NCBI GenBank assembly: GCA_028351415.1 | Contig: JAOMJV010000002.1 | Coordinates: forward strand, 34,410 to 98,409 | Origin: Candidatus Nitrosopumilus sp. | GTDB lineage: Archaea > Thermoproteota > Nitrososphaeria > Nitrososphaerales > Nitrosopumilaceae | Direction of reading: 5' to 3' | DNA length: 64,000 nt | Shown: piece by piece, positions 24,540 through 27,463 of the stretch | Numbering within the stretch: position 1 is the first letter of the stretch | Layout of the letters: each line of letters opens with the position of its first letter | Made by a program: the position numbers and the translations under genes | Notes under the pieces: generated by a model | What the model saw: the letters and a program-made list of their open reading frames with translations, nothing else | Database searches by the model: none | Told to the model about the DNA's origin: nothing

Positions 24540-25424
24540 GTGGATTTAAAAAAATTTATTGAAGTACAAGGATTAACTGATTTCCCTATTGGATTGGGTG
24601 GTTGTAGAACTGCCGGGTGCTTCTTTGATTCTTGTGATTACGATCTTATGGTGTTTGATGAAAGTTCTTCAGATAAACAAATTATTGCATTTGATGACAA
24701 TTTAATTACAGTTCATCATTCTTCCTTATCTGAAACCAATACAAAAAAACTTTTACAATATGACCAATTAGATATTCTTCAAGATGATTCCTGGAATTTA
24801 AGAATACTACTTTCTACAATTTCTGAAAAACGTAATTCCTTATTTTCTGATTCTGCAAAAAATTCTTTAATTGAATCTCTTTTTTGTTGTCAAAAAACTA
24901 AAGATGCAATTCAAACTAATGATGTGTTTGCAGCATGCTGGCAAAAATGTGCTTCATATTATTTAGCTGATTCTTTATCTTCTTTCAATCAAAGTCCGTC
25001 TAGTCCTTCACATACGCTTGATTCTCTTCGAAAATTTAAGAAAAGTTCTATCAATAATCATATTTCCGGTATTTTGGAAACTATTGGAATTGAGCGAGCT
25101 ACTCCTACATTACTTGAGCGTATGTTAAAATCCACTATTGGGTTTTCTGATTTAGTTGAGAAAAATAATCATTCTCAACTGATTAAACAAAAATATGATT
25201 ATTTCCTAAAAAACTCGATGCTTTCTGATTGTTATTTTTATTTAGTATATGTGAATAAAGATAATTTTATTAAAATTAAAGATAATTTAAACAAGGAACA
25301 GGATCTAATACACATTCTAAAAATTGCTTTTGACATCGAGTCTGATTCAAATCTTCTTCAACAACATGTAGAAACGATTCAAACTTCATGTAATGACATA
25401 CTTGAGATAATTTCAAAGACTTGA
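24540..25424 (+). CDS. Nucleotidyltransferase-fold protein, conserved hypothetical
   Basis: GGCRTAGCFFDSCDYDLMVFD resembles the NTase G-R-x-G...DYDL motif; GTG start. Confidence 0.55.
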   Translation: MDLKKFIEVQGLTDFPIGLGGCRTAGCFFDSCDYDLMVFDESSSDKQIIAFDDNLITVHHSSLSETNTKKLLQYDQLDILQDDSWNLRILLSTISEKRNSLFSDSAKNSLIESLFCCQKTKDAIQTNDVFAACWQKCASYYLADSLSSFNQSPSSPSHTLDSLRKFKKSSINNHISGILETIGIERATPTLLERMLKSTIGFSDLVEKNNHSQLIKQKYDYFLKNSMLSDCYFYLVYVNKDNFIKIKDNLNKEQDLIHILKIAFDIESDSNLLQQHVETIQTSCNDILEIISKT

Positions 25425-25474
25425 TTCAACATTCTGTACTAACCTTTTAAAACAAGTAATATCATTGAGTTATC

Positions 25475-25621
25475 ATGACAGATCAAGCATGTGGTTGCGA
25501 AGCTGATAGCGGCGACCCAGATTACTCATGCGACTGTGCAATGCAAGGAGCTTGTATTTGCAGCGCAGATTGCAAATGTTCAACTGACGTTTGTAAAGAA
25601 GCCGTTTCACAAATGAACTAA
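25475..25621 (+). CDS. Metallothionein-like cysteine-rich microprotein (48 aa)
   Basis: MTDQACGCEADSGDPDYSCDCAMQGACICSADCKCSTDVCKEAVSQMN; 9 Cys including four C-x-C pairs; TATA-like ccttttaaaac upstream; below ORF cutoff. Confidence 0.65.
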   Translation: MTDQACGCEADSGDPDYSCDCAMQGACICSADCKCSTDVCKEAVSQMN

Positions 25622-25657
25622 AACAGCTTATTAAAATCTCATTTTTTATTTTTTATT

Positions 25658-25825
25658 TTAATTATCTTCTTGCTCAAAGCCCCAAGATTTTACTAATTCT
25701 TTTTGGAACTTGTCTGCTTGTTTTTCATCTAATGGGAATCCACAATTTTTATGAGTAGGAACAACTGTCATTCCGTCTAATTTGAATTCAATTTCAAACA
25801 AGTGAGTTTTTGAACATTCGCACAT
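25658..25825 (-). CDS. Small hypothetical protein (55 aa)
   Basis: MCECSKTHLFEIEFKLDGMTVVPTHKNCGFPLDEKQADKFQKELVKSWGFEQEDN; below ORF cutoff. Confidence 0.5.
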   Translation of the reverse strand: MCECSKTHLFEIEFKLDGMTVVPTHKNCGFPLDEKQADKFQKELVKSWGFEQEDN

Positions 25826-25948: not shown

Positions 25949-27463
25949 TTGAAAGCAATTTTATCAATTCCCATTATTCTTGTATTATTTTTAGGCATAA
26001 CTGTCACTTCATCTGCATATGGGCAGATTGAAGCTGGTGGCGTAAGTTCTGATACGCTCCCACAAGGAACTACGTGGTATGCTGGTGAGGGACTACAAAA
26101 AGGTGATTTCTTTTCTTATTCAACATGTTTTGTTGATTACAAAGAATGTACAAATTTCCAAATGGATTTTTGGATTAAAGGTGATAAAATAGTTGGCAGT
26201 GAAACCAAGTGGTTATCCGAAGTTGTTGTTTATGATGGCAATAAAATAATTGTAGGTGAAATGGAGTTAGGTAAAATTGCTCCAGAACCTACTGGCGGTA
26301 CTCCCGAATTAGGTATTTACCGTGGTGCGTTCAAGTCATCTATTGCTTGGCTATCTGCTTTTGCAACATCTGATGGAAGTTCTGGAGGAAAAGGTCCTAA
26401 AGCATTCAGCGAAGTATCTTGGGGTAAAATTGGAAACATTGGTGGTCAACAAGTTGTTCCATTAGCTATTGAAACTATTACAGTCCCTGCAGGAACTTGG
26501 GAGACTGTGATAATGTCTTGGAAAACAGGTGGGGCTGTAAGTAAAGTTTGGATTGCAGATGATTTCCCTTTTCCAATAAAAGCTAAAACTTACACTCATG
26601 TTGCTGAAGGTATTCCTCCGCCAGAGTATGATTTTAAATTATTAAAGTATGAAAATAGATCAGACTCTCCATTTGTTGGAATTGTATCTACTGTAGATGA
26701 ATTAGCTGCTGCTGGATGTAATACTGATATCGAAAGGAATGTAATTCATAAAAGATCTAGCGATGATTTCAAATACCAAATTCATGTTTTCTATGGACCT
26801 GAAGATCCAGTTGTTGGTTGTGACATGCAATGGCTTGTTAATTTCTTAAAATTTAGTGACGAAACTGAATTTTTAAATCAAGTACAATATGATATTTTAG
26901 TTTTAGATAGTGATGGCAAAGTAAAAAGATCCATCGCAAATGAAAATGGTGAATCACACCTCTATTCTCCTTCTGGTCAAGCTCTAGTTGATTTTGTTGT
27001 TAAGGAGGATCCTGGAACTGCCAATTATACAATCATAATTTATGGATTATCTCCTAAGGGCGTTGCTCCTTCTGTAGCTCCTGATCTTCTTACAATAGAA
27101 GTTCCAATTTATGCTTCAGATGGAAGTATACCTGTTGCAAAAATTCCGTCCTGGATTAAGAACAACGCAGGCTGGTGGGCAGATGGAACTATTGACGATG
27201 AATCATTCGTTCAAGGAGTTCAATTCTTAATCAAAGAAAAAATAATGAAAATTCCAAAAACCACACAAGGTACTGGTGGAAGTTCTGATGACATTCCACC
27301 TTGGATTAAGAACAACGCAGGCTGGTGGGCAAATGGAGATATTGATGACGGTTCATTCATCAAAGGACTTCAATTCTTGATTAAAGAAGGTATTATGAAA
27401 GTCCCACAACCTTATCAGAGTAACACTTCTTCTGGTGCTGAACCTCCAGCCTGGTATAACTAG
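25949..27463 (+). CDS. Secreted protein with two C-terminal WIKNNAGWWA repeats
   Basis: Signal-peptide-like MKAILSIPIILVLFLGITVTSSAYG; two 38-aa repeats; TTG start. Confidence 0.75.
   Translation: MKAILSIPIILVLFLGITVTSSAYGQIEAGGVSSDTLPQGTTWYAGEGLQKGDFFSYSTCFVDYKECTNFQMDFWIKGDKIVGSETKWLSEVVVYDGNKIIVGEMELGKIAPEPTGGTPELGIYRGAFKSSIAWLSAFATSDGSSGGKGPKAFSEVSWGKIGNIGGQQVVPLAIETITVPAGTWETVIMSWKTGGAVSKVWIADDFPFPIKAKTYTHVAEGIPPPEYDFKLLKYENRSDSPFVGIVSTVDELAAAGCNTDIERNVIHKRSSDDFKYQIHVFYGPEDPVVGCDMQWLVNFLKFSDETEFLNQVQYDILVLDSDGKVKRSIANENGESHLYSPSGQALVDFVVKEDPGTANYTIIIYGLSPKGVAPSVAPDLLTIEVPIYASDGSIPVAKIPSWIKNNAGWWADGTIDDESFVQGVQFLIKEKIMKIPKTTQGTGGSSDDIPPWIKNNAGWWANGDIDDGSFIKGLQFLIKEGIMKVPQPYQSNTSSGAEPPAWYN
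27143..27406 (+). repeat. Two 114-bp direct repeats (27143-27256, 27293-27406) coding IPxWIKNNAGWWAxGxIDDxSFxxGxQFLIKExIMKxP
   Basis: Aligned by eye in translation and nucleotide. Confidence 0.9.

What the first reader, a model, noticed from the sequence alone, without database searches (positions are those of the whole stretch)
25475..25621. Metallothionein-like 48-aa, 9-Cys microprotein missed by the ORF cutoff
The peptide CGC...CDC...CIC...C.C....C has four C-x-C pairs and one more Cys in 48 aa, resembling metallothionein architecture. A TATA-like ccttttaaaac about 25-30 nt upstream fits a leaderless transcript. Ammonia oxidizers have a high copper demand, so a Cu/Zn buffering role is plausible.
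Basis: partly seen in the sequence, partly recalled or inferred. Interest (0 to 1): 0.7.

Follow-up and report, generated by a model that had tools for sequence, protein, structure and literature searches.

The report
Conserved nine-cysteine metallothionein-like archaeal microprotein
A tiny, previously unclassified cysteine-rich protein found in almost every ammonia-oxidizing archaeon of the Nitrosopumilaceae, both free and as the inner tail of a membrane protein, looks like a metal-holding (metallothionein-like) module, though which metal it binds has not been shown.

Summary
The ORF is real. Window 25475-25621 (+) encodes 48 aa with nine Cys (CxC-x10-CxC-x5-CxC-x3-CxC-x4-C). It lies 25-27 nt downstream of a TATA box at a spacing kept in all 114 distinct upstream regions examined, which fits a leaderless transcript. 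Relatives occur in 164 of 172 sampled Nitrosopumilaceae genomes and essentially nowhere else. In 146 of 147 distinct peptides, aligned without a Cys filter, all nine Cys are kept, and the gene order is conserved. Several non-Cys residues are also invariant.

That protein's family tracks archaeal amoA, and in the copy read closely all of its Cys lie in this domain. Free and tethered domains have exchanged sequence. In one related genus, two extra free copies flank a homolog of the membrane protein, next to a second amoA.

No Pfam, NCBIfam or PDB family matches, and no paper in the searched library describes it. Best reading: a convergent metallothionein-like M(II)3Cys9 or Cu(I)-thiolate module that holds metal in the cytosol and at the membrane. 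Metal identity and function are inferred. A structural Zn3Cys9 interaction domain is the main rival.

The parts
25475..25621 (+). 48-aa, nine-Cys metallothionein-like microprotein gene (stop codon included)
   Evidence: family-wide homologs; nine Cys kept in 146 of 147 distinct peptides
25445..25452 (+). TATA box TTTTAAAA; TTT|AAA centre 26 nt upstream of the ATG, consistent with a leaderless transcript
   Evidence: spacing 25-27 nt in 114 of 114 distinct upstream regions
25435..25444 (+). TGTACTAACC directly upstream of the TATA box: BRE plus an extended element conserved in Nitrosopumilus and near genera, not in the more distant ones. The exact 16-mer TACTAACCTTTTAAAA occurs once per genome in the seven genomes that have it
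25642..25659 (+). T-rich tract just after the stop codon, probable archaeal terminator (inferred from sequence only; no stem-loop terminator was found)
24540..25424 (+). Upstream conserved neighbour, 294 aa, no family match; gene order kept across the family (start codon inferred)
25658..25825 (-). Convergent conserved neighbour, 55-aa protein starting MCEC; not detected in Nitrosopelagicus-like relatives

Best explanation
A convergent, Nitrosopumilaceae-specific metallothionein-like module. The nine thiolates of this ~5 kDa cytosolic protein wrap a small metal cluster: M(II)3Cys9 for Zn, or a multinuclear Cu(I)-thiolate cluster. Expressed from a strong-looking leaderless promoter, the free form holds or buffers exchangeable cytosolic metal, most plausibly Cu(I) in these copper-dependent ammonia oxidizers, with Zn(II) as the alternative. 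A second copy of the domain, fixed to the inner face of the membrane as the tail of a single-pass protein, holds the same metal at the membrane, so free and tethered forms may exchange or compete for it. Shown: the gene, its conservation, the nine Cys, promoter geometry, the tethered copy, and domain exchange between the two slots. Inferred: metal binding, cluster stoichiometry, metal identity, buffering or relay function, topology.
For: Nine Cys kept in 146 of 147 distinct peptides even at 45-60% identity. Four CxC plus a final Cys is the same order of motifs as the mammalian MT beta-domain (comparison from general knowledge), which binds three metals with nine Cys (C9M3; PMC7614390). There is no signal peptide on the free form. 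In the membrane form the only nine Cys of 474 residues lie in the tail, after the transmembrane helix and a basic flank, so on the inferred cytosolic side where thiols stay reduced. The membrane protein family tracks archaeal amoA: families f1, f2, f3 and f8 have both, and the families without amoA have neither. In genome G166 two extra free copies flank a homolog of the membrane protein beside a second amoA, and in G219 a decayed copy lies directly behind the second amoA. The Cys-rich copper store Csp (DUF326) occurs in 11 Nitrososphaeraceae-type (f8) genomes but in only one family-f1 genome of the same 221. Csp rises under copper limitation in N. viennensis (PMC7785015).
Against: No metal-binding data, no transcript or protein data, and no homology to any described metallothionein. 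Many non-Cys residues are invariant, and Tyr17 is present in all close relatives, which is atypical for metallothioneins that only sequester. AlphaFold2 gives no confident fold (mean pLDDT 50). The extended promoter element resembles the core of the N. viennensis copper-limitation motif (TTCSGSMTTTGWACYANT), but the shared 7-mer is no more frequent than chance in the window and the link is post hoc. The conserved free gene is not next to known copper genes.
Confidence: 0.6

Rival explanations
1. A structural Zn3Cys9-type domain (as in Bud31) whose role is protein-protein interaction rather than metal storage: zinc makes it fold, and its conserved surface docks a partner, both free and as the tail of the membrane protein.
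For: Strong conservation of non-Cys residues. A nine-Cys, three-zinc structural cluster exists in Bud31 (PMC7614390). The best, though non-significant, PDB match is the zinc-binding UBR box (E 0.02). The tail slot of the membrane protein also carries a zinc-ribbon-like tail in another lineage.
Against: The loop between the first two CxC pairs varies by a residue, and types A and B differ strongly outside the Cys while both occupy the free and tail slots. The UBR match is driven by Cys composition and shares no full pattern.
Confidence: 0.22
2. A dedicated Cu(I) chaperone that hands copper to a specific membrane or AMO assembly partner, rather than a buffer.
For: Invariant non-Cys surface; near-universal in this ammonia-oxidizer family; tethered twin at the membrane; linkage to a second amoA and a membrane-protein homolog in one genus.
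Against: Known Cu chaperones use one CxxC or CxC site, not nine Cys. The canonical gene is unlinked to amo genes, and the amoA link rests on one intact and one decayed case.
Confidence: 0.1
3. A thiol-redox or Fe-S protein (redox buffer or small ferredoxin-like carrier).
For: Cys-rich cytosolic protein in an aerobe that handles reactive nitrogen species.
Against: There is no CxxC motif at all in the window protein, and no ferredoxin spacing. Nine strictly conserved Cys do not match a 4- or 8-Cys Fe-S pattern. No family match.
Confidence: 0.05

Closest known systems
Mammalian metallothionein beta-domain (C9M3 cluster)
   Same: Nine Cys; four CxC followed by one Cys; small; cytosolic (architecture compared from general knowledge; C9M3 from PMC7614390)
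   Different: Longer loops (x10, x5, x3, x4), Tyr and often His present, no alpha-domain, no detectable homology, many invariant non-Cys residues, and a membrane-tethered version exists
Bacterial metallothioneins (SmtA/BmtA type, Pfam Metallothio_Pro)
   Same: About 50 aa, Cys-rich, prokaryotic, cytosolic
   Different: No match to any Pfam metallothionein family; different Cys spacing, without the zinc-finger-like fold residues known for SmtA (general knowledge)
Csp copper-storage proteins (DUF326, PF03860)
   Same: Cys-rich cytosolic metal store; reported copper-responsive in the ammonia-oxidizing archaeon N. viennensis (PMC7785015)
   Different: Csp is a larger four-helix bundle (general knowledge); its family profile hits 11 f8 genomes but only one f1 genome, an almost reverse distribution
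Bud31 (structural Zn3Cys9 protein)
   Same: Single cluster bound by nine conserved Cys (PMC7614390)
   Different: Larger eukaryotic splicing protein with a structural rather than storage role; no sequence similarity found

Membership tests
Metallothionein (general definition) | Low mass and high Cys content (10-30%) with CxC or CxxC repeats | tested here: met
   48 aa, 9 Cys (19%), four CxC
Metallothionein (general definition) | Metal-ligand Cys conserved among homologs | tested here: met
   146 of 147 distinct peptides keep all nine
Metallothionein (general definition) | Aromatic residues few or absent, little conserved outside the Cys | tested here: not met
   Tyr17 and many non-Cys residues invariant in close relatives; relaxed in diverged genera
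Metallothionein (general definition) | Binds d10 metals in metal-thiolate clusters | not testable with these tools
   needs ICP-MS, native MS or 113Cd NMR
Pfam metallothionein families | Profile match above cut-off | tested here: not met
   no metallothionein family listed up to E 10; NCBIfam none up to E 1
Csp / DUF326 | Match to PF03860 repeats | tested here: not met
   one search lists no family for the protein; one search finds no DUF326 in the window genome
UBR-box zinc domain | UBR zinc-ligand pattern and significant similarity | tested here: not met
   E 0.02-0.4, partial and composition-driven

The most novel reading that the evidence does not exclude
A two-form metal-thiolate system that, as far as found, is not described: the same nine-Cys module as a free cytosolic carrier and as the inner tail of an ammonia-oxidizer-specific membrane protein, passing or comparing metal (probably Cu(I) for ammonia monooxygenase and related enzymes) between cytosol and membrane. 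The two copies are interchangeable enough to be overwritten by each other, and it replaces Csp-type storage in Nitrosopumilaceae.
Probability: 0.22. Interest if true: 0.8.

Novelty: new variant of a known kind. Interest (0 to 1): 0.62.

Why it matters
Nitrosopumilaceae are among the most abundant marine microbes and rely on copper enzymes, yet how they hold and distribute intracellular copper is poorly known. The N. viennensis copper study proposes that N. maritimus likely uses a chaperone other than CopC to deliver copper (PMC7785015). A near-universal nine-Cys protein that no searched database has classified, with a membrane-tethered twin in a protein family that tracks amoA, is a concrete candidate for that missing component. 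It would also be a metallothionein-like family in Archaea; the searched library holds no paper with the phrase 'archaeal metallothionein'.

Tried and rejected
Chance ORF: rejected by family-wide conservation, low pN/pS, synteny and promoter spacing.

Virus or mobile origin: no relative in IMG/VR viral contigs, and fixed synteny across the family.

Known family: Pfam, NCBIfam and PDB (sequence and profile) gave nothing significant.

Structure: AlphaFold2 of the free domain (pLDDT 50) and of the membrane protein (pLDDT 39) too poor to use. A PDB fold search of the latter gave no match at E<=0.001 and is not interpreted.

Copper regulon by promoter: the exact promoter core occurs once in each of seven genomes, so no regulon appeared. 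Similarity of TGTACTA(A) to the core of the N. viennensis copper-limitation motif is only a lead, because the 7-mer is not enriched in the window.

The Cys conservation came from a Cys-requiring pattern and was redone without that filter.

The N. maritimus copper-stress transcriptome paper is not in the library.

Full report
OBSERVATION. Window 25475-25621 (+) encodes a 48-aa protein with nine Cys arranged CxC-x10-CxC-x5-CxC-x3-CxC-x4-C. The reverse strand of the exact interval has stops in the complementary frame, and the other small overlapping ORFs listed have no support. The TATA box TTTTAAAA (25445-25452) is centred 26 nt before the ATG.

CONSERVATION. A search of 101 genomes found relatives in all 61 genomes of the window's genus. 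A draw of 301 genomes of the class gave 164 of 172 genomes of the window's family and one borderline hit outside. A profile search of 400 genomes of the phylum gave 64 of 64 family genomes and 0 of 336 others. Named records are Nitrosopumilus, Nitrosarchaeum, Nitrosopelagicus and Cenarchaeum-type organisms, so the family is Nitrosopumilaceae. No relative was found in viral contigs.

Aligned without a Cys filter, 146 of 147 distinct peptides keep all nine Cys; the exception is a partial third hit in G178. Diverged orthologs in other genera (about 45-60% identity) keep the nine Cys while the loops change. Among close relatives DQACGCEA, GDP, Y17, CDC, MQG and CKEA are invariant (one search used a Cys-requiring pattern, so only its non-Cys columns are informative). 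pN/pS over all pairs of 19 species is 0.17, with synonymous sites near saturation in many pairs.

PROMOTER AND SYNTENY. In 114 distinct upstream regions the TATA centre lies 25-27 nt before the ATG, the geometry of a leaderless archaeal transcript (general knowledge; no transcript was tested). TGTACTAACC precedes the TATA box in Nitrosopumilus and near genera, but not in Nitrosopelagicus-like genera. The core 16-mer, with one mismatch allowed, occurs once in each of seven genomes searched. The gene sits between a conserved 294-aa gene and a convergent conserved 55-aa gene across the family; the latter was not detected in the Nitrosopelagicus-like loci.

A SECOND, MEMBRANE-TETHERED FORM. Most Nitrosopumilus genomes encode the domain again as the C-terminus of a ~460-480-aa protein. 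The window's genome has it at G000:C34 (L031:2320-3744:-). It has an N-terminal hydrophobic signal-like segment ending near AFGAQ, a ~290-residue Cys-free region, one transmembrane helix (about 314-338) followed by a basic stretch, a Gln/Pro-rich linker and the nine-Cys domain. The only nine Cys of its 474 residues are in that domain. Signal segment outside and basic flank inside place the tail in the cytosol (inference). The tail-less part of this protein is found in families f1, f2, f3 and f8 of the order, the same families that have archaeal AmoA (PF12942) in the same 221 genomes, and not in the families lacking AmoA.

Other lineages carry different tails: a short conserved SMPKGWKP end, a different domain in G034 (L210), or a zinc-ribbon-like tail in G166.

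DOMAIN EXCHANGE. Two sequence types exist: type A (DQACGCEADSGDPDYSCDC...) and type B (DAACGC.A....NG.ECDC...). Type A is the usual free form and type B the usual tail, but some deep-branching Nitrosopumilus have type A tails that include the free gene's initiator Met, and some genomes have type B as the free gene in the same syntenic place. In isolate B12T1B11 free and tail copies are 96% identical in DNA, closer to each other than to any of the other copies compared, consistent with recent conversion. So the two slots accept the same module.

LINK TO AMMONIA OXIDATION. In genome G166 (another genus of the family) two extra free copies flank a homolog of the membrane protein, and the first lies about 480 nt downstream of a second amoA gene (AmoA confirmed by Pfam). 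In G219 of the same genus a broken relic of the same gene lies just downstream of its second amoA. Four other second amoA copies in that genus have no recognisable Cys-rich ORF beside them. This is suggestive, from one intact and one decayed case. In the same 221 genomes DUF326 (Csp copper store) occurs in 11 f8 genomes and one f1 genome, nearly opposite to the present family; many f8 genomes lack a DUF326 hit too, so the replacement idea is only a correlation. Csp is copper-responsive in N. viennensis (PMC7785015).

WHAT IT IS NOT. No Pfam, NCBIfam or PDB relative; the UBR-box match (E 0.02) is partial and Cys-driven. AlphaFold2 gives no confident model and the fold search is uninformative.

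INTERPRETATION. The motif order (four CxC and a final Cys; nine Cys) equals that of the mammalian beta-domain, which binds three metals with nine Cys (C9M3; PMC7614390), with longer loops and no detectable homology, hence convergence. A cytosolic metal-thiolate module is the best reading. Copper is favoured over zinc by physiology and by the amoA associations, but only weakly. The invariant non-Cys residues and the tethered copy argue for a specific fold or partner, so a structural Zn3Cys9 interaction domain (as in Bud31, same source) remains the chief rival. Metal binding, metal identity, expression and function are untested.

LITERATURE. Searches pairing metallothionein with Nitrosopumilus or with Thaumarchaeota, and for 'archaeal metallothionein', returned nothing describing such a protein. 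A survey of Haloferax mediterranei reported finding no metallothioneins there (PMC9240420). The library is open-access only, so prior annotation elsewhere is possible.

Noticed in passing
window 25658-25825 (-): Convergent 55-aa protein (MCECSKTHLFEIEFKLDGMTVVPTHKNCGFPL...) is highly conserved beside the nine-Cys gene in most of the family, with a CxC near its start and an HKNC; no family match.
   Followed up: partly
window 25949-27463 (+): Secreted-looking 504-aa protein with two WIKNNAGWWADG/NG...GVQFLIKE repeats near its C-terminus and no Pfam match; conserved neighbour in most loci.
   Followed up: no
L198-L212 (membrane-protein homologs; L210 for the odd tail): The cytoplasmic tail of this ammonia-oxidizer-specific membrane protein family is modular: nine-Cys domain, a conserved SMPKGWKP end, a different domain in G034, or a zinc-ribbon-like tail in G166.
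   Followed up: partly
L188/L212 (G166:C12): A second amoA gene lies near a nine-Cys gene, two predicted secreted proteins (one with His-rich HASAHLHG near its signal cleavage site), a membrane-protein homolog, a TPR protein and a second nine-Cys gene.
   Followed up: partly
L243:1780-1934 (-): Decayed relic of the nine-Cys gene directly downstream of a second amoA in G219, with a multicopper-oxidase/NirK-like gene nearby.
   Followed up: partly
class-level searches: The ~400-aa signal/single-TM membrane protein family occurs in the same taxonomic families as archaeal amoA and has no Pfam name: a candidate ammonia-oxidizer signature protein.
   Followed up: partly
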